The notes under the pieces were generated by a model that saw only the letters and a list, made by a program, of their open reading frames with translations, was not told where the DNA came from and made no database searches. The position numbers were made by a program, and so were the translations under genes. A stretch of 64,000 nucleotides of DNA from Diphasiastrum complanatum (taxonomy: Eukaryota > Streptophyta > Lycopodiopsida > Lycopodiales > Lycopodiaceae), in the NCBI GenBank assembly GCA_029204225.1, contig MU832134.1:21591-85590 (forward strand), given 5' to 3'. Below, piece by piece: positions 16,501 to 58,365 of the stretch; the first letter of the stretch is position 1, and each line of letters begins with the position of its first letter.

Positions 16501-16513
16501 GTAGCTTTCAACA

Positions 16514-18640
16514 ATGGCAATATTCCATTTGCATGTTGCTCTTCCTATGGAATGCACTCCAATTATTAAGAAAAATTCGAAAGTTATAGAGAATGTTGCT
16601 GCAATAGTTAGAGAATTGAGAATGAATAATCATAGGAATATAGATTTGTGGCTGGATGGATCAATTTATCCTAATGATCCAACTACCAATTTGTGTCCAA
16701 ATTTTAAATCCGTAACTCATCTTCTCAGATTTGTATGTGAAGGAAATAGCGGAATACTTGAATATTGTCAAAGGTTACGTGATATTGGAATGCATAGCAT
16801 ATCTTGTCTTAATCAGCAATTATAGTTTGCTAATCAACAATTGCAACGTGCAAATTAGCAATTGCTTCATTATGTGCAATACACTAGTGCTGAAAACAAT
16901 GCACTCAAGAATGCTATGTCAGAGTTGAATGCTACAATCACTACTCTTCGGGGATCAAACCAAGAAATGTTAGAATCCATGGAAAAGTTGCGATTCGAGG
17001 GTTTAAAATCTGTTGTTGATATAAAAGTTATCAAAAAGGTAATGATGAAGAGAAAAAGAAAGAGAGTATCGATGAAGAATATTGATGACTTACCTACACA
17101 TAGAGGCAATCAGAAAAAAAGAATTCGAACATTCAAGTATGTTTTCATATAAACTATTTATTTGATTTGTATGTGTCAGACTGTTTTGATTAAGGTTCAA
17201 TCATACTTGGATGCAAATGTGATTGTGGGTGCATGTGATGTTTCTGGAATTAGCAGAAATGCTTATTCTACTTTTTTTAGAATAGTTAAAGAAGCTTTTC
17301 CTCAAGTGATGGTGAAGACAACTTATCTTCCGCATCCATATCGGATAAGATTAGCAAGAAATTATTATAATGATGGAATGTTCAAATTAGTTGGCCAACC
17401 ACTTCATATAACTGAATTATACAAATCAGAATATGGTGAGCTCAATTACAACGATTGTAATAATATTTTTCTTGATATTGAAAATGCTCTAAAATACATT
17501 TCGATTCTATAAACTAGACGAACATCAAGTAAATGGAAAGATCATTATTGTAATAAAATTAGATGAATCTGAAATCATCAATGGTCAAAAGTTGGAACGA
17601 GTGAGTGTCACTTTGATGAACAAAATTTCAGTATAGATGATCGATGTTTAGTGTTCAATCGGAAAATCACATATGGTGGTTGGCGGCATTCCAGGTATAC
17701 ATTTCAATTTTCATTTAAAGTATCATTATGAACATTTCATACATTGCCATTTTTTATTGACATGTCATGCATTATATGCTTCTCTACAGGTCTTGAAAGA
17801 TGACCATAAAATACTTTCATGGATATTTTCAAGAACAAATTATGGCGAGATTATAAAGAGACATTTGGAGGGTGACAAGTTTACAATCGAAAATCATGGA
17901 AGTTTTCAAATCCAATGGCACCTTGCAAGGGATTTGAAAACATTAAAATGTATGTATAATGTCTCTCATGGTACAACATCAAAGCATCCATGTCTTTATT
18001 GCATGAAGAATTGCTACAATATGAATTTGAGATGATCAAACATTGGCCCAACACAAGAAGCTGAAAATTCAAATATAAAAAGTGCTCTGCCAATTCCATT
18101 AAAAAATGTTCACATATGCACGTTGCATGCTGAGGTTCGTATTATTGAAAAACTTATTTACCTGCATATTCTCCTAGCATGGAATCATAAACCGGAGTCT
18201 GTGGCTAAAGCAACAATTAGGAGGTTGGAAATAGTTTTGTCAAATGTAGGACTACATTAAGAGAATCTCACGATTGAAAAAAGTGATAGACACTTCGGAA
18301 AAAAAAGAAAACGTTCCTAATAAGCCATCAATTGGAGGTTCTAAAGCAAGAAGATTCTTATCCAATCACACATGCAAAGAATCAAGTGTCACATACGAAA
18401 TTTGGAGAGAAATTGTTCAATCCACACGAACACTAGAAGGAAGTAATCGAGTGGAAAAGGGGAACCAACTTAGACAAACTCATAGGTGTAATCAGGAAAG
18501 AAAACCTATCATCAGAAGATATGAGGACTTTGCAAAATCATTGCACTATATTTGTAAAATCTATACATGATTGTTGGGGAAAAGACAACGTTACACATTA
18601 CATGGTGTTATTGTGTTCAACAACGTTTGCTCTGCTAATG
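16514..18640 (+). pseudogene. Transposase-like gene of an unnamed family, copy 1 (decayed)
   Basis: The frames at 16514-17152 encode an N-terminal region, then a coiled coil (about 16862-17010) and a basic KRKRKR nuclear-localisation-like stretch. From 17180 the sequence aligns piece by piece with the minus-strand gene at 51.7-53.6 kb. Shared words are NNIFLD; IKLD at about 17560 followed by KLERVSVTLMN; NHIWW; WHLARDLKTLKCM with a CLYCM zinc-like pair at about 17920-18005; VHICTLH; and THYMV at the end. A 95-bp GT-AG intron fits at 17695-17789. Several stops and frameshifts break it, and the C-terminal part is missing after 18640. DDE-type transposase activity is inferred from the spacing of conserved acidic residues. 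Confidence 0.65.
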
Positions 18641-19510
18641 TCATATCCTCCAATGGCCTCTACATTTCCGGAGGGGATATATCGAGTCCTTGGGGGATAT
18701 TTTTTTTGGAATTCCAAAAATTCCTCCTCTATAGGCAAAGTTTCTTCATAGGCTTTAGATTTTTCAATCATGGCCTCCAAGGCCTCATTGCCATATTTCC
18801 AATTGCCATCTTTATCATACTCTATCTCACTTTCAAAGTCATCATATGTGTAATCAACAATGTTAGAAAATTCTGATAAATTTTGTGCAAAACTTGAGAG
18901 AATTTCATCCTCTCTCAAATTCAAAACATCTTCTATATCATTAAATAAAATATAACTCTCATTATTTATAAAATATACGGAAATATCAAGTAGAGTTAAT
19001 TGATTGACAAGAGATGTAGATGGATGAGAATCAGAGATTATAGAACGAGGGAGAGTTTTGTGATAATATGAAGCCATAGATGCTTCAACTTCAATCCCTA
19101 TATCAATATCTACATCATCTACATCAATTGGAACAAATGCAGATGCTTCAATCATTGGAATAGTAGAAGATTCTACAGACTCATCATCTGAAAGTTTAGC
19201 AGATATGTAAAAGACAAAAGCCATTTGATTAGAAGGCGAGATATTCTCTTATGGATACCACAATATATATTTCTTTTGAAATGATCATGCAGGTTAGAGT
19301 ACTTTCTATTGTGTTTATGCTTAAAGGAGGGTTGGGATGCACAAGGTCCTAAAAATGAACGAAACAAAAACTATCTATATCTTGAACAGGAGTACTAATA
19401 ATCTGAGAAAAATTATCAAGAAGAGAAAGTAAATTATAACGATTCTCATAAACTAGCTTATCGATATCAAAGGGTGCAAAAAAAATACTGGAAAAATACT
19501 CTAATTATTT
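18598..19510 (-). pseudogene. Unidentified acidic ORF (208 aa) with upstream open sequence
   Basis: A 208-codon frame (18598-19224) rich in Asp, Glu and Ser, with clusters such as PIDVDDVDIDIGIE and YDDFESEIEYDKDG. The last 30 or so codons are antisense to the end of the transposase-like gene, so the true end is probably near 18690. The sequence upstream on the same strand (19240-19500) stays open in another frame (IDKLVYENRYNLLSLLDNF). I do not recognise a family. It may be an accessory ORF of the same mobile element. Confidence 0.4.
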
Positions 19511-19678: not shown

Positions 19679-20227
19679 ATGATGCGGACTAAGCAAACAG
19701 CACAAATCCACCCTGGTGGAATCCCAATCACAGGAGGAGGTCAGGGAAATCCTCCACCACCGCCTCATCCACCACCACCTCCTCCTAGGCCAAAAGGCAG
19801 ACGAACAGACCCTCCCTGGCTGAAGGATATTTGGAAGCTACAGAAGACCAATAATCTTCTGAATCCGAAAGCTCACATACAGAGATCCATTAGATAGGTT
19901 ACGAGAAGTCTATCTGCAGATGTGAGATGGACTATAACGGCAATTGAGACGTTGCACACTGCATATGAGGATTTCCAAGTGAAATTTTTTTTAGATAGTG
20001 TTGTTGCTGCTGTCCATGCCAAGAGGGTGACCATCATGCCCAAGGATTTCAACATTGTGTTCATGCTACATGACACATATGACAAATTTGCTGAGTACTT
20101 CAGACCGGCTCTCTCCTCTCCTCCAAAACAAAATGCAGAGAAAGAAAAAACGAAAGCAATCTCAACCATCCCGGTTTGTTTTTCGAGTACAGAGCGGGAG
20201 TGTTTCAAAGGAGAGGAAGTCTCATGA
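19679..20227 (+). pseudogene. Divergent histone H3-like domain with Pro-rich insertion, one internal stop
   Basis: The frame starts with RTKQTA (residues 3-8), the H3 tail signature. A proline run follows (about residues 28-38), and then a region that aligns without gaps to the H3 core. WLKDIWKLQKTNNLL matches the alpha-N region ALREIRKYQKSTELL. QRSIR matches QRLVR. ADVRW matches TDLRF. HAKRVTIMPKD at 20015-20047 is identical to the H3 alpha2/L2 segment. One TAG (19895-19897) falls exactly where H3 has a Glu codon. Many normally invariant H3 residues differ, so it is not a replication or CENH3 histone gene. The reading frame probably shifted near 20110-20140 into the linker frame described next. 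Confidence 0.75.
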
Positions 20228-21147
20228 ACCTCCTACTAAAGCGAGAGATTTTTCAAAGCCTTATCCTCTGCATGAGATTCTAATTGCTCGAGAATCTCCT
20301 CCTAAGTCTCCTTCTTCTCCTCCTAGATCTCAATCTCCATCTTCTCCTCCTAAATCTTTCTCTCCTAATAAATCTCCTCTTCCATCAAAATCTCAGTCTC
20401 CTCCCACCCTCACAGACATTAGTTTCCTCCCTCCAGTTTTAGAAAAAGATCTAGCTGATTTTGTAAATTTAAAGGTCGAATCCATTTTGAATGACAATTC
20501 TTTGAGTAGCTTGTCTGTATTACTTCCTTCACCCCCTACACTTGCTTTTGTAGATACTCCTAAATATGTACATTATGACCAATTGTTAAACACATATCTT
20601 AAAACTCTAGGTCCTCTATACAGTTTTAAGATGCCAAGGACCAATGCTGGTCTTCCCCTTTCTAGAATAGATACAGTTGAATCTGAAAATAGGGATAAAG
20701 CAGTAGGCGACAATGTAGGAGAGGGGGCAATTGAGTACTGAATGGAGTTTTTCCAGAGCCCACTGTTTATAGATGTAGCATTGTTTCTGCTTCAATTCAT
20801 GGAGGCTTTTGATTTCCCTGATTTCAAAAGTCTACACGATGATATGCTTCAATATGTGAGACTGGGGACTCCAATTCTCATGCTCCCATACATAACAAAG
20901 TAAGTGTATTTGTATCAGATTTTATTAAGTTAAATTTTTTATATGCATTTTGATTTCACATTTCATTCTCATAAATTTATTGTTTTGTTATTGTAGTGAT
21001 CATTGGAGCTTATACGTGTTGTCCTTATATGTCAATGATGAGGGTGTGTGTAATCCAGTTTGTTTAAAGATAAACTCTATTACACACACACAAAATTGCC
21101 AGGAGCCATATCTAGAAAATGTTGGAACTCTTTCTAATACCACATGA
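20055..21147 (+). pseudogene. Basic Ser/Pro linker plus Ulp1/C48-like protease start, probably fused to the H3-like domain
   Basis: After the H3-like part the +1 frame runs as a basic stretch (QRKKKRKQSQPSR), then a long Ser-Pro-rich linker (about 20270-20420), then a more globular region to a TGA at 20739. The same frame continues at 20742 (MEFFQSPLF) to a GTAAGT donor. A 97-bp intron (20900-20996) ends in TTGTAG. Splicing joins MLPYIT to NDHWSLYVLSLYV, the His-Trp motif of Ulp1/C48 cysteine proteases. The expected following Asp appears as Asn (INSITHT), and no catalytic Cys region is seen, so the protease is truncated and dead. The fusion to H3 is inferred from one needed frameshift. Confidence 0.55.
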
Positions 21148-21729: not shown

Positions 21730-22177
21730 TTGATATTCTCAATATGTTCTTGGTATCCATTGATCTTCTGCATTTTTTTCATTCCAAATATTGATTGCAT
21801 CAATGGTTCCTCTTGGTCTCTGATTATGTGTAGCCATTACTCGAAAATACGTGTGCGCAAGCAAAGAACGGAGAGAATGAAGAAATTGAGAGGTAAATCT
21901 AAGAATGACAATCCAAAATAAGAGATAGAATGAAGAGAATGGGAGGTATTCCTGTGAATGGCAAGAAGTTCCTAATCTACAAGGATTAGTTAGCTAGAGT
22001 TTACGACTATTGACGTCAAATCAACCTCAGGTGTACAAAGACGGACAACATAAGAGTATTTGAGCAGTAACTGTGGTCCAATCACAATTGTTTGTTCTGT
22101 CGTACGAACAAAAATTTGACCGAGAAAGTTAAATACAATTTCCGTCCGTCAACCATTGTTACAGTTCGTCACAAAAT
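21730..22177. other. Spacer before the truncated LTR
   Basis: No domain recognised. The similarity to the 3' LTR at 27.1 kb begins abruptly at 22178, so the left part of the 5' LTR is missing or replaced here. Confidence 0.5.
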
Positions 22178-22501
22178 TAAGATCTGCTTCTTTGTGTTCT
22201 TGTTTGGAAATGTAAATATTGTAGATAAGCTTTGATCTGCTTTGTTTTCTTTCCTTTCTTGGCATTTCTTTGCTGTAAATAGCTCTTGAGTTCTTGATTT
22301 ATTGCATGTTTTTGGGTTCTTGTTTGGTTGGTTTCCTGCTGGATTCATGAAGAGTTGGTTTCTTGATTGGTTTCTGGGTTGAGGGTCTTTAATGCAAGAT
22401 TGAGATTTGAGCTCGGTGGGAAGGGAACTCTATTACAACAAGATGAGATGAGTGGTTGAGGGAGAGAAACAGATTCTGGTATGTGCTAGAATTGGTAAAC
22501 A
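22178..22501 (+). mobile_element. 5' LTR (left-truncated) of a pol-less LTR retrotransposon
   Basis: Positions 22178-22501 match 27097-27436 nearly throughout. The main difference is a short GGTGAAGGCGGAA-type insertion in the right copy. It ends in CA, directly followed by T and a tRNA-Asp primer site. The right LTR continues further left into sequence not present here, so this copy is truncated. Confidence 0.85.
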
Positions 22502-22502
22502 T

Positions 22503-22580
22503 TGGCGCCATTGCCGAGGATCGACGAACCTAGGTCGTTCGCGTGACAGGCGAAAATACTCACCACTATACTACAATGAC
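22503..22580 (-). tRNA. Nearly full-length tRNA-Asp(GTC)-like sequence serving as an extended primer-binding site
   Basis: Read on the minus strand, all arms of plant tRNA-Asp are present. The acceptor strands GTCATTG and CAATGGC pair. The D-arm GTATAGTGGTGAGTAT is intact. The anticodon stem is TTCGC/GCGAA around the loop CTGTCAC (anticodon GTC). The T-arm has a 3-nt insertion (TTCG TCG ATC), followed by discriminator G and CCA. Nuclear tRNA genes do not encode CCA, and the CCA end abuts the LTR, exactly where a primer-binding site belongs. It therefore looks like a captured primer tRNA and not a gene. The T-arm pairs poorly, so function as a tRNA is unlikely. Confidence 0.8.
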
Positions 22581-23142
22581 ATCTCAAAACAATAAAAAGA
22601 CAGAGCCATGCAAATTGATGAAATGTGAAGATAGGCCTATCACTCATCACAATACTCCATCTCATAATCAAGCTATTGATCGATTTACAAAACAAGTGAT
22701 CAATTCTCTACGTAGATTTGGAATCTCTCCATATATGCAACAACAATACTTGCAATGGATAAAAGGAGCTGAAGCAGCACACGATGAAGAATTATTTAAA
22801 ATATGGTATGATGTCATTGGAAATCAATCCACAATGGATCAGCAAGCAACGACCACGATACAAACAAAAGAATCTACTGAAGTTCTTGATCCAAGAGATC
22901 AAGGTCAAGATCAAGAAGAAGTAAGGAATGAAGATCATCGTGGTGAAGGGCTGGCTAGTCAACGCAAAGATGATAATTCCACATCAGATTGGAAGTTTAA
23001 CATATGTTGGCCATACTATTTATCACGTTTCAACTTGCAACCATCAGATTCGATGAAGGGGCACTACTTCAAATGGCTCAATGAGATGGACTATAAAGAT
23101 TCAAAATGTTGGAAATTAAGCCCACAATTGTCTCCTTGGTGA
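22576..23142 (+). pseudogene. Internal ORF A of the pol-less LTR element: aromatic modules 1 and 2
   Basis: The frame opens inside the tRNA-like segment; the ATG at 22576 (MTSQNNKK) is a likely start. It encodes a hydrophilic protein with two copies of an unrecognised module. Module 1 (about 22681-22815) has QQQYLQWIKG and ends LFKIWYD. Module 2 (about 22990-23112) has WPYYLSRF, then HYFKWLNEMDYKDSK. An acidic Gln/Glu-rich linker separates them. The frame is lost just after module 2, probably by a frameshift. No gag, protease or RT motif is present. Confidence 0.55.
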
Positions 23143-23149
23143 ATGACTA

Positions 23150-23900
23150 TTTTCTATTTCATGATTCTTCTTGCACGTTTATTGATCATTGATATAGGGT
23201 CAGGTGAAACCAACTTTGGTTCTAGGTCTTCTCATCTAATACCTGCAGGAATAACAAACTTAGACAACCAATTATTTTAAGAACGTCTACAACGGGCTTC
23301 CGGCTGATCTCCAGCAAAGGGTAACCAATCCTATCATAAATTCAAGTTCAAATGTTAAGTTTAATAACTTGAAGTCATTGAAGACTTGGCCATCTTCAAG
23401 GACTTCCACAAACTTGCATTTAGAACAAGTCTGCAAATTTACATTACTTTTTCAACAGTCTGTAGAAATACACTTTCTTTTTTGCTGTAATTGCTATTTG
23501 ATTGTGCTTCAGTGTAATATAGCAGCAACACGCTTTTCTATCTGTGTATAACGTAGATGAATGCTTGTTGTGATTGAATGCACTCTATCAGTATTTGATC
23601 ACACTTGTTTACTCACTCTAATCATAACTTGGACGTCTACGACTCCTCAATTTCTGATCAGACGATGGCTATCTTTGATGCCTGAGGAATTCGCGATATC
23701 ATACTGCTCTTCCATCTATTTCAGAACTAAACTTCACATTGAATCCATTTTTCAGTAATACCACACACAAACCATTTCTAATCTCTTCGGTGGACTATAC
23801 TCTCATTTTTCATGAGTATGAATTGATTTTTAAGATCTTGTTGGGCAATTAGGACACTTAAAGCTATGATTATATTCATCATAAGCTTTCTATTAGATTC
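23150..23900. other. Interior of the pol-less LTR element between ORFs A and B
   Basis: No long frame. Positions 23308-23400 contain gag-like wording (NGLPADLQQRVTN) and match, in inverted orientation, 61736-61830. Confidence 0.5.
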
Positions 23901-23903
23901 TTT

Positions 23904-24770
23904 TTGCATCTAATAGTTGATTGTAATGGGAGAGATGTTCCGCAATATTCTTGCTCTCTTCTCCGTTCGTGTTCTTCTATCTCCCGTAACCCATCACAAA
24001 GAAGATGTTTGGAACAAGAAAAGATGAGGAGTCAAGGGCAAGAGGCAAATCAGATGTTGTTAGATCCTAAGAAGGATGAATTACTGGAAAACCAGCAGCA
24101 AGATGATTTCTATGAAGATTCTAAATCAAGTCATAATGTCGCAATCTATTGGCCAGCATATTTGTCAACGTTCACACAATGCTCACCTGATGATTTTATA
24201 GAGCCATATTTTTCATGGTTGGAAGACACAGGCTACGCGGATTCAAAGAAAATCTTTAGAAGATGGCAGGGCAGAAAAGAAAAAGATATTGAGGAGTGGA
24301 AGGAAAAGCAAAAACTTGATGAATCTGAATGAAAAGAAAAACAAAGGGTAAGAGTGAAGGAGAAAGTACAACAATCTAGAAGTAATGATCGAGATGACAA
24401 TCTGACTGAAGTTTCATGTTCGAGCATAATGACAAGAACATTCCAGCTAGTGCACAGTGTACCGCAAGAATGCATGACTGAAACTTCACCTCAAGATCTA
24501 ATCACACGAGCTTCTAACGAAGTTCTAGATTGTTGGCCACTAGATCAATTCAGGAATTCCTACTTTAATTGGTTAAAGCTAACAAAACACGAGTATTCAA
24601 AAGCAACTTTTAACCATTGGTGGAGAACAAGAAGGAAAGTCAATGAAAAAAATGACGATGTGGTAAATAGATTGGCAAGACATCAGGGATTTCCACCGAG
24701 AACTCTTCATGCCTCCAATGGAACATCTATAAGAGTTTTTCAATTTCATGTCTATAAACAACCACATTGA
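23904..24770 (+). pseudogene. Internal ORF B: aromatic modules 3 and 4, one stop codon
   Basis: One frame runs through both parts, interrupted only by TGA at 24330-24332. Module 3 (about 24132-24273) has IYWPAYLSTF, EPYFSWLEDTGYADSK and IFRRW. Module 4 (about 24495-24632) has NSYFNWLKLTKHEYSK and FNHWW. A very basic/acidic helical stretch (RRWQGRKEKDIEEWKEK) joins them. Modules 1-5 share Y-F-x-W-L, then about 5 residues, then Y-x-x-S-K-x-x-F-x-x-W. I do not know this family. Confidence 0.55.
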
Positions 24771-25067
24771 GCTATCAAAGCAAAATGTTCTCCACTAAAT
24801 GATGCAAAAGGGGTACACAAGGAAGGATGAGCACTCAACGGCTAAGGAGGACAAAGCCAACAAATCTATATCTCCCAATAAACAAAGTGTAGAGGAACAA
24901 GTGTCAAAAAGGCCAGATCAGAATGAAGCTGAATCAAACGTGAATGGCTTTGGGGGTTGTTTCCAACAAATGTAACTTGTTTAAGAGAATATGAGCTTCA
25001 AATACAAATTCCACCAAGCAGTGTATATCTAAACCAAACTACTCCTGCTCTTCAAAATTGAACTACC

Positions 25068-25439
25068 ATGTCCAATGGAGCAGTTGCTACTCAAGCACAC
25101 CAACCTATGCATCAACATCCAGAGGCACATGCACCTACAATGCAAGAAATGTACTTGAACGCTGCTTCTCAAACAACAAGACCTCTTTATCCTGCAGAAA
25201 CAAATGAATATTTCCTTCATTCGACACTTCATGATGAATATCAATACCAAGATCACAACGATTCATCAATATCTCCAATCTATCTCGACTACATTTATGC
25301 ATACAACTCTTATGATGGATATGCAGAGAGTAACCATTCTATACCAAGGGGTCAAGCGCCACCTACATATTTCAAGTGGTTGTCTCGAATACACAATCAA
25401 GACACGCCATACAATTACGATTGGTGGTATACAACATGA
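25068..25439 (+). pseudogene. Internal ORF C: aromatic module 5
   Basis: The 123-aa frame is in the same phase as ORF B but separated by stops. It is His/Gln/Pro-rich at the N-terminus. It ends in a fifth, diverged module (about 25275-25430): PIYLDYIYAY, PTYFKWLSRIHNQDTPYNYDWW. It may be the C-terminus of the original protein. Confidence 0.5.
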
Positions 25440-26029
25440 CTTCAACCGAACTGCCATGTTTAACAGCTATTCATATGAAACACCCTCTTATAGACCTGCA
25501 ATACTTCCAATCAGAAGCGGACAACCATTCCAGCAAGGACTTTTTTCACTTTTTATATCTTTTTTCAGAAAAAAAAAAACCCTGCAAATTATTATCTCGC
25601 AGATTTTACGTATTCTTTAAAATATTCTTTTATGGGCCTCACCACTACATTATTTATTTCAATTTATTCTACCTTACATTTCTCATTGAAGCTTTCTTGA
25701 GTGGCCTTTTAAAAAAATGAGTGGAAAAATAAAGATGAGAAATATAGAGTGACATTTCTATTCCTTACTCTATTTTATTACTTTTACTTCTTCTTTAGTT
25801 TCTAGTGTTTTCTGGAATACAAGCCATTTAGGCCAGGTACATTCAAGAATTCTCTATGGATCAATGATCTTGTAAAGCTCATGAAGCATGGTAACGCATC
25901 CTTATCCGTGACTTTGTGTATGTTCTACAACGAAGTGGCTATTGGCCTAATCAACCTCAAGCTGCTAATTTTCCAACTGCAACACAACTTTCAAGCAGAT
26001 GACAAAGATGCTTCTATTTTCAATTAATA

Positions 26030-26217
26030 AGATTCAAATGGAAATGTGCAATTAAGTCAAAGATTTGAGGCCAAAAGAAAGTTGTTGCTCCTCAACAACA
26101 TATTCAATTGAATCCAAGGTTTTAGATTCAAATGGAAATGTGCAATTAAGTCAAAGATTTGAGGCCAAAAGAAAGTTGTTGCTCCTCAACAACATATTCA
26201 ATTGAATCCAAGGTTTT
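26030..26217. repeat. Tandem duplication, 2 x 94 bp
   Basis: Positions 26030-26123 and 26124-26217 appear identical. They begin AGATTCAAATGGAAATG and end AATCCAAGGTTTT. The identity suggests a very recent event within the decayed LTR element. Confidence 0.95.
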
Positions 26218-26493
26218 TTGAAACCCTTTCGTCACAACAAGAAAGAAAGACAATTTTCTAATAAGCTATTGGTTTTACGCAAGCGATAAAATATATATGC
26301 TTTTCCAACTGCAAAGTCTTCAAAAGTCACCAATAAAGTCATCTTCAATAAATCTCCTCATCCAATACTGCAGGGGGACCTGCAGTTGTTTGAGAAGGGG
26401 CAACGTTGGCAGATTCCTTTAGGCCAACATTAACAATAAGTTGCAAGAGTCGTGGCATCCTGCGTGCGCAAGACCATAGCCCAATGAGCACTT

Positions 26494-27436
<943 letters not shown>

Positions 27437-27486
27437 TGGAGAAACCTGAAAAACGCGAAGGTGCCTTTGAAAAGCAAAGGCAAAGA

Positions 27487-30193: not shown

Positions 30194-31040
30194 TGTTAAA
30201 ATTGGCAAAAGCTAACTTGATCATATCTTGTGAATACCATTATGAGTAGTACATATCATCATAAGACATGTGTGGAGCCTGTTCCCACGTGTGAAATAAA
30301 TGCATTTCTCATTTAGATGAGTCATATAGGTTGTACATACCATTTCATTTGAGATCTAGTGGCTAAAATGGCCAAAATCTAGTTTTCTAGCTATATGCCA
30401 CTTGGCATCATTTTATTGGTAGGAAAAGCTATTTCACATGGATAGGAGTGATCTCACACGTGCTAAGGACTGATCACATGTGTGAAAACATCAGTAGTAG
30501 GTGAGATCCAACTTGTAGTAGATATTTGTGCAAGTCCCTATAATTAGGAAAATTGACTAAAATCAAGGGAGGTGGCTATAATTAGGAAACTTGGTCCTTG
30601 TGCCATATTGATGATTATTGGTGGATCCTTTGATGAGTAGGCACTCCCACACCTGCCAAATCAGCTGAGTAAGCATCACCTCTTGTGTATATATGGTGGC
30701 TCATTTGGCCATAATTGATAAGAAAGCTAAATCTTGGTTTTGGTGCATTTCTTGAGTAATCTCTCCATTTGTCTTGTGATTTTATGCTTCTAATGGTTTC
30801 TAAGCTTAGTGTACTTCATTATTTGCTGGTAGTCCGTACTCTGACAGGTATTCACACGTGTGAAACCAGCAAGTACAAGTTTTGATCATATTTGATTGTT
30901 CTTGTTAGATTTGTTGATGTAGATTTTATCTAGTGCTATATAATCTTGTGTAGATTGGTAGATCAATCTAATCTAACACCCAAACACACTTGTGGATCTG
31001 ATTTGGATCCATTCTTGGTCCTTTTTGCTGTACTTTGACA
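30194..31040 (+). repeat. 5' LTR
   Basis: TG...CA ends. Contains several CACGTG/CACATGTG words, including the 14-bp palindrome TTCACACGTGTGAA at 30851-30864, and a TATA-like TGTATATATGG at about 30685. Confidence 0.93.
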
Positions 31041-34629: not shown

Positions 34630-35478
34630 TGTTAAAATTGGCAAAAGCTAACTTGATCATATCTTGTGAATACCATTATGAGCAGTACATATCATCATAA
34701 GACATGTGTGGAGCCTGTTCCCACATGTGAAATAAATGCATTTATCATTTATATGAGTCATATAGGTTGTACATGCCATTTCATTTGAGATCTAGTGGCT
34801 AAAATGGCCAAAATCTAGTTTTCTAGCTATATGCCACTTGGCATCATTTTATTGGTAGGAAAAGCTATTTCACATGGATATGAGTGATCTCACACGTGCT
34901 AAGGACTCCTCACATGTGTGAAAACATCTGTAGTAGGTGAGATCCAACTTGTAGTAGATATTTGTGCAAGTCCCTATAAATTAGGAAAATTGCCTAAAAT
35001 CAAGGGAGGTGGCTATAAGTTAGAAAACTTGGTCCATGTGCCATATTGATGATTATTGGTGGATCCTTTGATGAGTAGGCAATCTCACACCTTCCAAATC
35101 AGCTGAGTAAGCATAAGATCTTGTGTATATATGGTGGCTCATTTGGCCATAATTGATAAGAAAGCTAAATCTTGGTTTTGGTGCATTTCTTGAGTAATCT
35201 CTCCATTTGTCTTGTGATTTTATGCTTCTAATGGTTTCTAAGCTTAGTGTACTTCATTATTTGCTGGTAGTCCGTACTCTGATAGGTCTTCACACGTGTG
35301 AAACCAGCAGGTACAAGTTTTGATCATATTTGATTGTTCTTGTTAGATTTGTTGATGTAGATTTTATCTAGTGCTATCTAATCTTGTGTAGATTGGTAGA
35401 TCAATCTAATCTAACACCCAATCACACTTGTGGATCTGATTTGGATCCATTCTTGGTCCTTTTTGCTGTACTTTGACA
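34630..35478 (+). repeat. 3' LTR
   Basis: Matches the 5' LTR end to end; carries the palindrome TTCACACGTGTGAA at 35289-35302. Confidence 0.93.
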
Positions 35479-37619: not shown

Positions 37620-38951
37620 TCGTTCGTCACATGGCCTACCATAGGCTATGTTGTAGGCCACATAGGCCTACTATCTAGCAAGCCTATCATAGGTTGCCAC
37701 ATGGCAAGCCAAGTAGGCCTACCACATGGCAAATCATGCAAGCTTGGGGTTTGCCACATGGCAAGCCATGTTGGCCTACCATAGGCTTATGCGGCAAGCC
37801 AACAAAGCTCTACCATATAGGCCTGAGTGGACCCAGAGAGAGATATAGAGAGGTGGGCTTGAAAGCTGACACATGGCAAGTCATGTAGGCCTACCATAGG
37901 CTTGCATGGCAGACCACATAGGCATGGCATAGGCCTCATGTCTGCCATGCAAGCATGTTGTAGGTTGCCACATATGCTTGTCATAGGCTTGTGTGGCAAG
38001 CCAACCAGGCTCTGCCACGTAGGCTTGAGTGGACATAGAGAGAGAAAGAGGTGGGGCTCGCAAGCTACCACGTGGCAAGCCACGTAGACCTGCCACGTAG
38101 AAAACCATGGAGGGTAATACTTCCCCATGTCGTAAGCCATGTAGGACTACCATAGGCTTGTGTAGCAAGCCACATAGGCATGGCATAAATCTACTATCTG
38201 CCAATCTTGTCATAGGCTGCCACGTGGAAAGCCACGTAGGTCTACCATGTGGCAAGTCTTGCAAGCTAAGAGTTTGCCATGTGGCAAACCATGTAGGTTT
38301 AACATAGGCTTGTGTGGCAAGCCAACCAGGCTTTGCCACGTAGGCCTGAGTGGACCTAGAGAGAGAAAAAGGTGGGGCTCAAAAGCTGCCACGTGGCAAG
38401 CCACGTATGCCTTCCATAGGCTTGTGTGGCTTGCCATATGGCCTACCATAGGCTGGTGTAACAGGCCACATAAGCCTGCTATCTACCAAGCATGTCATGC
38501 ACTGCCAAGTGGCAATCACATATGGTTGCCATGTGGAAAATCATGCAGGCTTGGGGTTAGCCATGTGGCAAGCCACGTAGGCCCATCATAGGCTGGCAAG
38601 CCAACCAGACTCTGCCTACGTGGTCTGCTATCTGCTAAGCCTATCGCACACTACCACGGGGCAAGCCACGTAGGTCTGCCACATGGCAAATCATGCAAAC
38701 TTGAGGTTTGCCATGTGGCAAGCATGTAGGCCTACCATAGGCTTGTATGGCAAGCAAACCGGGCTCTGCCACGTAGGTTTGAGTGGACCTAGAGAGAGAG
38801 ATATAGGTGGGCTCGAAAGTTGCCATGTAGGCCTACCATAGGCTTGCGTGGCAGGCTACATAGGCATGGCATAGGTCTAATGTCTGTCACGCAAGCATGT
38901 TGCAAGCTACCACATAGGCTTGCCATAGGCTTGTGTGGCAAGCCATGGACC

Positions 38952-39000
<49 letters not shown>

Positions 39001-39238
39001 GGGGCTCACAAGTTGCCATGTGGCAAGCCACGTAGGCATGTCATGAGACAAACCACGCAGGCTTGGGACTTGCCATGTGGCAAGCCACGTAGGCCTATCA
39101 TAGGCTTGTGTGGCAGGTCATATAGGCATGACATAGGCTTGATGTCTGCCATGCAGGCATGTTGCAGTCTGTCACATAGGCTTGACATAGGCTTGTGTGG
39201 CAAGCAAATTAAGCTATGCACCACGTAGGTCTGCCATG

Positions 39239-39240
<2 letters not shown>
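37620..39240. repeat. Complex satellite rich in GCCACGTGGC, TAGGCCTA and GGCTTG words
   Basis: Short palindromic words are reused in changing order: CCACGTGGCAAGCCACGTAG, TAGGCCTACCATAGGCTTG, TTGTGTGGCAAGCC. A longer landmark (GAGTGGACCTAGAGAGAGA followed by GGTGGGGCTC) recurs near 37830, 38030, 38350, 38790 and 38945. Spacing is irregular (about 160-430 bp), so this is a scrambled higher-order array. Cys/Trp/His-rich open frames across it on both strands are artefacts. Confidence 0.88.
38953..38998. repeat. (GA)n microsatellite inside the satellite
   Basis: GA expansion at the landmark GGACCTAGAGAGAGA, which is short in the other copies. Confidence 0.95.

Positions 39241-39327
<87 letters not shown>
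39240..39327. repeat. (GA)n microsatellite at the satellite end
   Basis: Second expansion of the same GAGAGA landmark; the satellite stops here. Confidence 0.97.
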
Positions 39328-54828: not shown

Positions 54829-56095
54829 TCACATCTGAAAATTGTCAGACTTGGCCTCAATCGCCTTATTTGTCCACTTCAAAGAATCAGGTTCTTTTAT
54901 TAGAGTTTGAAGCTGTGTTTCGAGAGAACGATTTTGTTCAATCAGTTTCGAGTTGTTTGATTCGAGCGAATCAATATTCTCGTAGGACTCATTTAGAGAG
55001 TCTTGGCATCTCCTTTCTGAGTTAATAAACTCCATGGTGATTTTTTGGTAGTACTTGTCCAATTCATAGATTTCAGCCACTAAGTTCTTGGCTTTCTTTG
55101 TCATGGTTCGAAACCACTGGGGTTGGTTGTCTGGTTCATCTTCATCTTCCACAGGTGCCCCAGTGTCGCCTTCAGCAACTGCTCGAGCCTTTCCAGATGT
55201 GTCGGATTGAGTTGCATCATCATCCGAGGTAGATGCACTCGGTTGCTTCTGAGATGTGGAAGCAGATGCTGGCTTTGAAGAATCAGCAGCAGCAGCAGCA
55301 GCTCCATTTGTATCCATAGCATTAGTATCAACTGCAGCTTGTTGTGAAGGTGCAGTATCTATCTCCATAGTAGCTGCTACTTTGACCGATGGTGCAACAT
55401 CTGCTGCAATCGGAATAGGCATGGTCAGGAGGCTGGAAAGATCAATTGGCTTTGGAGCCAACATTCTTCCCGTCAGCATGGTTTTCTCTTGCTTAGTCAA
55501 AATTTCGAAATGAGTGCACAATCGAGAAACATGTGCTCTGACTCCAGAAAACTTTTGGTGTTTGATCCATCGCAAAAAAAGCCTTGTATGTAATAACTCC
55601 GAAGCAAACTAGATTACCCGCTAATGTGTCCAATATATAACCAAAATTTTGAACTAAAATTGTCGCATCCACATCCGTCAAAAATATTGCTTGATTGGCA
55701 TATTTACAGAACAGTTTGAATGTCATATCTTTGATCGTTGAGATTTTGTATCCCTTCGTGGGTATGAAACAATTGCTCAAAAAATGTGCTGCTTCATCTA
55801 CTGAGTCTTTGTTTGTCGCAACAATCTTCCCATCCAATGGTAATCCGAGGGCTGTGTAGAACATGTCTTCAGTAATGGTGAAAAATTTGCCTCTCACATG
55901 TACTTTGAAGTCTACCTCAAAGATGGAGTGGATGGAGTTCACAGATTCTATACTAACTTCAGATAGGATGATGGAAGGATCCACTTTCAGATCACCCAAC
56001 CTGCATCGATCCAAATAGGACTGGATGGATGTCAGGCGAATTCATGCGCGTGCTTTCCAGATGATAGTAGAGCTAGAGCTCGATCCAAAAGCCAT
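54829..56095 (-). pseudogene. Additional ORF of a gypsy element (plant-transposon-protein-like N-term, coiled-coil C-term)
   Basis: The likely start is the ATG at 56095 (MAFGSSSST). A TGA sits 17 codons in, and the frame then continues to about 55530, where a frameshift joins it to the frame ending at 54829. The N-terminal half has VHVRGKFFTITEDMFYTALG, typical of the plant mobile-domain-like proteins found in retroelements. The middle is Ala/Ser/Thr/Asp-rich and acidic. The last 100 residues form a long coiled coil. It lies 3' of the integrase in the same orientation, so it may be the extra ORF of the gypsy element. Confidence 0.55.
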
Positions 56096-56464: not shown

Positions 56465-58365
56465 TTAATGGATGAATACAAAAAGTAGGTCGAGAGAATT
56501 TGCACGAGCTTCAACTAGTTCTTCAATATTGGTTAACCTTTCGTTAATACAGTCTTGATCTGTTCGTTGAGCTTGAATATGAAAAGTTTTCACCTCAAAT
56601 TCAATAGGCAAAATAGGATGCATACCATACGTAAGAAAATATGGTGTCTGTTTTGTTGTAATTTTTTCTATGTTATGATAAGCCCAGAGAACTGATGGTA
56701 GTTTCTGATCCCAATCCGTTGCATGTGCAATAGTAATTTTGTTCAGGATCTTACATAAAATTCCATTAGCTCTCTCTGTCAACCCGTTTGCTTTTTATTT
56801 ATACGGTGTAGTTTTTCTGTGTTTGATCAGAAAATATGTTGTCAGCAACCATATAGTGTCATTTAGAAAATGTGTACCTCAGTCACTTACTAGTTCAAGG
56901 GGACAACCATAACTTGTGATTATACTTTTGAATAAGAACGTCGTGACAGTTTCGCATCGTTTCGTTTCGTCACCTCTGCTTCAACGTTCTTTGTAGTATA
57001 ATTCATTGCAACTAGAATATAACGACATTTACTATGTCAAGTCACAGGTTTAATTGGACTGACAAAGTCAATCCCCCACTTCTCGAATGGTGCAAGAGAC
57101 AGGATTGGTGTCAACGACCAATTCATTACTTTGGTAGGCTTACCAAATCTCTGGCATGGATCGCACGAACGAATAAAATTTAATACATCCTTGAACATGG
57201 TTGGCCACCAGTATTTGGTGGTCAATATCTTATTAACAGTATTCTTCAATGCAAAGTGTCCTCCAGCATCTTTTGAATGTAAGGCTTGAACAAGACATCT
57301 TCGTAGCTGATGATCAGCACCAAGCTTGTACAGAACATTGTTAATAATCATATAAGTTGCTACCTTATATTGAAAAACTGTCTTTTTCTCCAAATCATAA
57401 CCATCCAGATATATCTGATCCTTGAGATAAGTAATGATATCAGAATATAACAAATTTGTGGAAGAAATTTCAAATAGATGTTCGTCTGGAAAATCATCAT
57501 TAATTGGTTCTTCAATTTTTCCAGTACTGAGATGCGAAAGATAATCAGCATTTGTATGATACTTTCCTTGACAAAGTTCTACTTGATAAGTGAATTCCTA
57601 CAGAAGTAGAACCCATCGAGCAATTCGTCCAGATAGATCTGGTTTATTTACAAGATACTTAAGAGCATAGTGATCAACGTGAAAAATAAATGCATATCCT
57701 AGCAAATAATGCCGAAATTTCTTAATAGTGAAAATCATGCTAAGTGCTTCCCTTTCTGTAGCCAAATAATTCTTCTCTGAGGCACTAAGTTGTTGACTCG
57801 CATAGTAAATGGGATGATCCTTCTTCTGGTCGTCCTTCTGGCTCAGACAGACGCCAATAGCAACTGCAGCAACATCAACATAACTATGAAATAAAATAGC
57901 CCAATTGGGTGGTCTAAGAATAGGAGCATTGATCAACTTGTGCTTAAGTTCTTCGAATGCTTTCTGTTGTTCATTTGTCCACAAGTATTCCACTTGTTTC
58001 TTCAGTAGATGTGTAAGAGAGGCAGTAATAGAAGCATGATTTTGAATAAATCTCCGATAATAGCCAACATGTCCTAAGAAAGCTCTTAGTTCACATAAAT
58101 TGGTTGGTATCTGGAGATTCTTTATAAGCTCGACTTTACCTTTGTCGACTTCTATTCCTCTGTTAGATATCCTGTGTCCAAGTAATATTCCTTCTTTCAT
58201 ACCAAAAAACCATTTCTCTAGATGAAGGGATAAACAAGTATCTCGACACCATTGCAATGTTAATTTCAGCTTCTGCAGGTGTGTCTTGATATCACTATAT
58301 ACACATAAATTATCAATGAATATTTCCAAAAAGGTTCTTAGGAAGGCAGCCTTGACTACCCTCAA
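56465..58365 (-). pseudogene. Ty3/gypsy pol: RT (3' half), RNase H, integrase
   Basis: The RT begins at RVVKAAFLRTFLEIFID, where the catalytic FVDD-type box reads FIDN, a lost Asp. It continues through FGMKEGILLGHRIS and RAFLGHVGYYRRFI. RNase H has FHSYVDVAAVAIG, ATEREALSMIF and FHVDHYALKYL. Integrase follows at 57453-57037 with an HHCC finger (GGHFALK, then CDPCQRFGK) and WGIDFVSPI, and ends at 56782-56500 (NGLTERANG, PYFLTYGMHP). The 5' half of RT and the protease are missing. Sequence type and the tRNA-Asp primer site fit the Tat/Athila side of Ty3/gypsy. Confidence 0.9.

What the first reader, a model, noticed from the sequence alone, without database searches (positions are those of the whole stretch)
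19679..21147. Histone H3-like domain probably fused to a basic linker and an Ulp1-like protease
The H3-like frame keeps the RTKQTA tail, a gapless match through alpha-N, alpha-1 and alpha-2, and the 11 residues HAKRVTIMPKD. The rest is very diverged and carries a proline run. A single TAG replaces a conserved Glu codon. After one frameshift the sequence continues into a basic Ser/Pro linker and, across a 97-bp intron, a His-Trp motif of C48 proteases. I know of no standard plant gene with this layout. It may be a chromatin-targeting protein of a mobile element.
Basis: partly seen in the sequence, partly recalled or inferred. Interest (0 to 1): 0.9.

Follow-up and report, generated by a model that had tools for sequence, protein, structure and literature searches.

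The report
Decayed histone-H3-like gene with long extension
A broken gene, probably from a large plant genome, starts with a heavily changed but clearly recognisable histone H3 and seems to run on into a long basic tail; the suspected SUMO-protease domain at its end could not be shown.

Summary
The H3-like part is real. Read with its stop as X, 19679-20152 (+) hits Pfam Histone at 2e-16 and solved H3 chains at 7.8e-15; 2000 shuffles come nowhere near. It is gapless with canonical H3 over 81 core positions, 32 identical. A simulated neutral H3 copy at that divergence never kept an 11-residue run (0 of 1000), so it probably evolved as a constrained protein before breaking. Open frames and codon statistics suggest one coding tract: H3-like part, frame change near 20.15 kb, basic Ser/Pro linker, exon, 97-bp intron, exon. 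The Ulp1/C48 claim is not supported: no Pfam or PDB match, although two real C48 fragments of similar length are found easily; scores near chance; no Gln/Cys half in the window. An upstream gene without a Pfam family recurs in the window, hinting at a mobile element. No plant genome could be searched, so intact relatives are untested. Best label: degraded divergent H3 gene with C-terminal extension.

The parts
19679..19702 (+). H3 tail remnant MMRTKQTA (H3 residues 2-7 kept, K4 included; K9 lost just after)
   Evidence: translation; alignment
19703..19813 (+). rest of the N-terminal tail, Gly/Pro-rich with a proline run
19814..20056 (+). H3-like histone fold, gapless with H3 residues 46-126 (32 of 81 identical)
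19895..19897 (+). in-frame TAG at the place of H3 Glu73
20015..20047 (+). HAKRVTIMPKD, 11 residues identical to H3 113-123; 8 of 10 informative codons end in G/C against 25 of 66 in the rest of the core
20153..20738 (+). basic Ser/Pro-rich linker and following stretch, in another frame; start approximate (frame change near 20.15 kb)
20739..20741 (+). in-frame TGA at the end of the linker frame, followed by ATG
20742..20899 (+). open stretch (probable exon) in the linker's frame, ending ...GTPILMLPYIT plus two bases
20900..20996 (+). predicted 97-bp GT-AG intron, 80% A+T
20997..21144 (+). probable second exon, N|DHWSLYVLSLY...INSITHTQ; C48-like only by a short motif, not significant; stop at 21145-21147
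16505..18748 (+). neighbouring broken gene A, no Pfam family; 17153-18748 is related to 53483-52034 (-), the part before it is joined by position and coding score only; possible mobile-element gene

Best explanation
This is a decayed copy of a gene whose product began with a divergent histone H3 (the K4 segment of the tail plus a full histone fold) and continued in one reading frame into a long basic Ser/Pro linker and a C-terminal part of unknown identity. Shown: homology to H3, and a pattern of change that neutral decay does not give. Supported but not proven: that linker and last exons belong to the same gene. Inferred: the histone fold paired with H4 (the H3-H3' and DNA-contact residues around H113-D123, R69, R72 and R83 are kept) or with histone chaperones, and so tethered the C-terminal part to chromatin, as a fused histone variant would. 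Later a TAG, a frame change and a TGA broke it. A mobile-element origin is possible but unproven.
For: Pfam Histone 2e-16, and 2.1e-9 for the piece after the TAG alone; PDB H3 chains 7.8e-15, with 179 distinct sequences matched and 60 shown, all named as H3 forms and none as CENP-A. Core 32 of 81 identical without a gap. Neutral simulation to the same identity, 1000 runs: mean 4.5 stops over 128 codons, at most 1 stop in 4.3%, a conserved run of 11 or more in none, at least 6 of H3 residues 1-7 kept in 2.8% (6 of 7 kept here); 9 to 28 indels expected over the 384 nt, none seen in the core. Kept residues include 9 of 15 DNA-contact and 6 of 9 H3-H3' positions, lists recalled from memory. A best frame with at most 1 stop over the H3 ORF: 3 of 1000 dinucleotide shuffles; the linker's 213 open codons: 0 of 1000. 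The codon-usage profile favours frame 2, then frame 0, then frame 1 past the intron; linker and next exon share a frame.
Against: The coding score of the linker frame is clearly negative over the low-complexity Ser/Pro stretch (down to -10.4 between 20.22 and 20.46 kb), though it stays the best of the three frames on that strand, and the H3 frame dips to -1.0 around the TAG. Two stops and a frame change break the frame, and the last part has its own ATG straight after the TGA, so two genes are not excluded. In the tail the alignment register is uncertain (one gap, two long gaps). No relative was found in any reachable collection; the protein collection seems to lack eukaryotic histones, so that says little. 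The fold was not predicted with confidence from one sequence (pLDDT 45). The high G/C at third positions of the 11-residue run (p 0.017) would also fit a recent copy from an ordinary H3 gene, which would weaken the constraint argument.
Confidence: 0.6

Rival explanations
1. The first reader's full reading, a special case of the best explanation: a mobile-element protein made of an H3-like module, a linker and a Ulp1/C48 SUMO protease, which targets de-SUMOylation to chromatin and lets the element escape silencing.
For: The spliced fragment aligns ILMLPYITNDHWSLYVLSL to the His strand of a C48 profile. Plant MULEs carry captured Ulp1 domains, and VANC proteins undo silencing (passages of PMC13317346; passages of PMC6117577; abstract of PMC10398659). 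Gene A upstream recurs in the window.
Against: No Pfam or PDB C48 match, while two genuine fragments of similar size score far above Pfam's cut-off and 19.7 bits even under the profile that lacks their own type, against 2.5 to 4.0 here. Near-chance scores. Under the Ulp2-type model the best stretch is not the His-Trp motif but IDVALFLLQFMEAFD (20769-20813) against the Cys region, in the wrong order. No Q..DCG motif in six frames of the window; Asn where the catalytic Asp would lie (recalled). No transposase domain in genes A or B; no convincing inverted repeats.
Confidence: 0.12
2. A divergent H3-like variant gene or retrocopy of the host that became a pseudogene, with the linker and last exons belonging to an unrelated neighbouring gene or element.
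For: Plant genomes hold H3-like genes with absent or degenerate N-terminal parts (passages of PMC4357034). No unbroken frame joins the parts, and the last ORF has its own ATG.
Against: The H3 frame stays open 56 codons past the aligned core, the linker frame opens within it, and the coding profile passes from one to the other.
Confidence: 0.22
3. An ordinary histone H3 gene copied by a DNA transposon and drifting neutrally, as in fungal hAT elements.
For: Such capture is in print for fungi (abstract and passages of PMC6710886); gene A may mark an element.
Against: Neutral drift to 32 of 81 identities should leave several stops and many indels, and left an 11-residue run in 0 of 1000 simulations. 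No hAT domain in the neighbouring pieces scanned.
Confidence: 0.1
4. Chance resemblance to H3.
For: None found.
Against: Shuffle maxima of 52 against 163 and 7.0 against 54.7 bits; Pfam 2e-16.
Confidence: 0.01

Closest known systems
Plant H3-like (HTR) variants (PMC4357034, passages seen)
   Same: Histone H3 fold with degenerate tail and substituted tail lysines
   Different: Only about 40% core identity to canonical H3, proline-rich tail, and a probable long C-terminal extension
H3 genes captured by hAT transposons in Dothideomycete fungi (PMC6710886, abstract and passages seen)
   Same: H3-derived sequence in a repeat-rich setting, broken copy
   Different: No hAT domain or terminal repeats seen here; pattern of protein-level constraint; linker
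Kaonashi (KIU) / VANC Ulp1-carrying MULEs (PMC13317346 and PMC6117577, passages seen)
   Same: If the C48 resemblance held, an element-borne Ulp1-like domain in a plant
   Different: C48 not demonstrated here; no MULE transposase found; the review has 0 occurrences of 'histone'
Histones fused to other sequence in giant-virus genomes, and macroH2A (PMC9145170, passages seen)
   Same: A histone fold carried inside a longer protein
   Different: The viral cases in the passages are fusions of histones with each other or with sequence of unknown function; no relative of the H3 part or linker found in viral contigs

Membership tests
Histone H3 | Pfam Histone domain above its curated cut-off | tested here: met
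   60.8 bits against cut-off 26.4 with the stop as X; 38.1 bits for the piece after the TAG alone
Histone H3 | gapless alpha-N, alpha-1, alpha-2 and L2 register with canonical H3 | tested here: met
   81 columns without gap, 32 identical
Histone H3 | modifiable tail lysines K4, K9, K27, K36 | tested here: not met
   RTKQTA with K4 kept; the following residues QIHP lack K9, and the rest of the tail is Gly/Pro-rich
Histone H3 | intact open reading frame | tested here: not met
   TAG at 19895-19897
Centromeric H3 (CENH3) | longer loop 1 and closer match to CENP-A than to H3 (feature recalled) | tested here: not met
   gapless through loop 1; none of the 60 shown PDB matches of 179 is named CENP-A; plant CENH3 was not compared directly
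Peptidase C48 (Ulp1) | profile match | tested here: not met
   no PF02902, no PDB C48 chain; genuine C48 fragments of 69 and 58 residues do match PF02902 (38.6 and 58.1 bits)
Peptidase C48 (Ulp1) | His-Trp strand | tested here: inconclusive
   best stretch lies at the right place in two of three models; 2.5 bits with 19 of 2000 shuffles as good; 16 and 13 of 2000 with the other two models
Peptidase C48 (Ulp1) | catalytic Asp, Gln and Cys | tested here: not met
   INSI where DSL/DSI is usual (recalled); no Q..DCG pattern in six frames; the copy may simply be truncated
Ulp1-carrying MULE (KIU) | MURA-type transposase and element ends | tested here: not met
   no transposase family in the scanned pieces of genes A and B; no convincing long inverted repeats
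Multi-copy mobile element | other copies of the H3-like unit in the genome | not testable with these tools
   one copy in the window; the genome search did not answer in 10 tries

The most novel reading that the evidence does not exclude
A plant mobile element encodes a histone-H3 mimic fused to a Ulp-type protease: the H3 module enters or docks on nucleosomes and the protease strips SUMO from silencing factors at the element's own chromatin.
Probability: 0.09. Interest if true: 0.85.

Novelty: new variant of a known kind. Interest (0 to 1): 0.5.

Why it matters
H3 is among the most conserved proteins. A lineage that kept the K4 tail segment and the H113-D123 core while changing 60% of the fold, and that carries a long extension, would be a natural test of which H3 surfaces are needed for what. 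If it proves to be element-borne, it would be a histone-based way for a parasite to act on host chromatin.

Tried and rejected
Protein search for relatives: three searches, of the H3 part within a 458-residue read-through (232 candidates, none at E<=1), P0001 alone (11 candidates, none at E<=0.001), and residues 255-458 of the read-through (563 candidates, none at E<=10). Since even ordinary H3 did not turn up, I take that collection to lack eukaryotic histones; these misses are not evidence of absence.

Scans of viral contigs (H3 part, gene B, linker) and of prokaryote contigs (H3 part) found no relative. Structure prediction from one sequence gave pLDDT 45.1 and pTM 0.26, too poor for a fold search, so none was run. 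Element ends: repeats over 13-27 kb, 14.4-19.7 kb and 19.2-22.2 kb gave only short or imperfect pairs. NCBIfam and PHROGs gave nothing above noise (NCBIfam archaeal histone E 0.1, below cut-off; best PHROG for the spliced fragment E 0.02, function unknown). Pfam's weak zf-Paramyx-P hit to the last exon (E 0.03-0.05, below cut-off) was taken as chance. Rfam found nothing at gathering scores.

It speaks against the protease, so I lowered that rival from 0.18 to 0.12 and the novel case from 0.13 to 0.09, and raised the two-genes rival from 0.20 to 0.22.

Literature: ten searches, seen as listings. None of the listed titles or abstract starts describes an H3-Ulp1 fusion or a plant element encoding an H3 fold. 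Of six papers I saw more: passages only of PMC13317346, PMC4357034, PMC9145170 and PMC6117577, abstract and outline of PMC10398659, abstract, outline and passages of PMC6710886.

Full report
What is there. From 19679 on the + strand a frame begins MMRTKQTA and, apart from one TAG at 19895-19897, is open to 20224. Its product with the stop as X matches Pfam Histone at 2e-16, 60.8 bits against a cut-off of 26.4. The piece after the TAG alone gives 2.1e-9, while the piece before it gives no histone hit. Solved structures: 179 distinct sequences at E up to 10, the best an H3 variant at 7.8e-15; the 60 shown are all named as H3 forms, none as CENP-A. In the fold the register with canonical H3 is gapless, with 32 of 81 positions identical, including HAKRVTIMPKD.

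Chance. 2000 shuffles of the protein reach at most 52 against an alignment score of 163, and at most 7.0 bits against 54.7 in HMMER. Among 1175 sequences scored beside it (1174 six-frame window ORFs of 30 aa or more, and the spliced fragment), two pieces of the same gene come first (32.8 and 7.4 bits) and the next has 5.7 bits.

Constraint before decay. Drifting an H3 coding sequence neutrally until 32 of 81 core positions remain takes about 185 substitutions. It leaves 4.5 stops on average over 128 codons, at most one stop in 4.3% of 1000 runs, and a conserved run of 11 in none. At indel:substitution ratios of 0.05 to 0.15 it would bring 9 to 28 indels over the 384 nt. The observed stretch has one stop, and the core has no indel; in the tail the register is uncertain. 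So most of the divergence probably came while the protein was under selection. A caution: the 11-residue run has 8 of 10 informative codons ending in G or C against 25 of 66 elsewhere in the core (p 0.017). A recent exchange with an ordinary H3 gene could have refreshed it.

Kept residues. Using contact lists from memory, 9 of 15 DNA-contact positions, 13 of 28 buried ones and 6 of 9 H3-H3' positions are identical, and 26 of 29 buried positions hold a hydrophobic or small residue. K4 and its neighbours are kept, K9 is not, and the tail is replaced by a Gly/Pro-rich stretch. Since the N-terminus would be Met-Met-Arg or Met-Arg, the free Ala1 of H3 that many K4 readers need (recalled) is not restored.

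The extension. A codon-usage profile trained on 1447 codons of eight window ORFs, two of them pieces of gene A, favours the H3 frame from 19.68 to about 20.2 kb (dipping to -1.0 at the TAG), then the linker frame to 20.88 kb, then the frame of the second exon beyond a 97-bp intron. Over the Ser/Pro-rich part the linker frame scores down to -10.4, though still above the other two frames of that strand. The linker frame is open for 213 codons where 1000 dinucleotide shuffles reach at most 171. Near 21.13 kb another frame scores as coding to 21256, so there may be a further frame change.

The protease claim. The spliced last part (102 aa) has no Pfam or PDB C48 match. Against a profile of four recalled C48 sequences the window's fragment scores 2.5 bits, at the His-Trp strand; 19 of 2000 shuffles and 20 of 1174 ORFs do as well. 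With two Ulp2-type sequences it gets 4.0 bits, its best stretch being a different one in the wrong order; 16 of 2000 shuffles and 4 of 1174 ORFs do as well. With all six sequences it gets 3.3 bits; 13 of 2000 shuffles and 12 of 1174 ORFs do as well. The control fragments get 19.7 bits under the profile that lacks their own type. No Q..DCG motif of the second catalytic half occurs in six frames of the window. So C48 is a weak lead; a very diverged or truncated domain is not excluded.

Surroundings. About 0.9 kb upstream lies gene A (16505-18748, +), with no Pfam family above cut-off in the five pieces scanned. Its second half matches gene B (53483-52034, -), 40% identical over 158 columns in the best part; the B piece scanned has no Pfam family either. 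The only significant H3-like match in the window is the locus itself, so B has no H3-like neighbour. Recurrence suggests a mobile-element gene. Whether A and the H3 gene form one element is open, since no ends were found. A candidate LTR-flanked element (22174-27437) lies downstream.

Mechanism. Most likely the histone fold docked the protein on chromatin through H4, DNA or a chaperone, and the C-terminal part acted there. Only the homology to H3 and the pattern of constraint are shown. The C-terminal activity is unknown; a SUMO protease is one possibility, made less likely.

Known relatives. Plant H3-like genes, H3 capture by fungal hAT elements, Ulp1-carrying MULEs and histone fusions in giant viruses each share one feature. 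None of the passages seen shows an H3 fold with this extension. No plant genome could be searched, so novelty rests on the absence of a description in the listings of ten literature searches, not on a survey of genomes.

Noticed in passing
window 17153-18748 (+) and 53483-52034 (-): Two diverged copies of a protein gene with no Pfam family (WHLAxDLKTLKCM, then paired Cys), 40% identical over 158 columns in the best part; probably a mobile-element gene.
   Followed up: partly
window 22174-27437: Ends 89.5% identical over 343 columns (candidate LTR pair). Four internal ORFs share a YFxWL motif; the three of them scanned have no Pfam family above cut-off.
   Followed up: partly
window 54829-56041 (-): Two long ORFs on the same strand as, and downstream of, an ORF with an integrase zinc-binding domain (57040-57597); no family above cut-off; possibly an extra element gene.
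   Followed up: no
window 18601-19248 (-): Acidic 216-codon ORF with good coding score, antisense to the end of gene A; no family above noise.
   Followed up: no
window 30194-31040 and 34630-35478: Direct repeat of about 849 bp at 97% identity, likely a young LTR pair.
   Followed up: no
window 37628-39284: Irregular array of diverged direct repeats, about 65-85% alike.
   Followed up: no
window 20769-20813 (+): IDVALFLLQFMEAFD resembles the Cys-region helix of Ulp2-type proteases (2.6 bits) but lies before the His-Trp motif and lacks the Cys; probably chance.
   Followed up: partly
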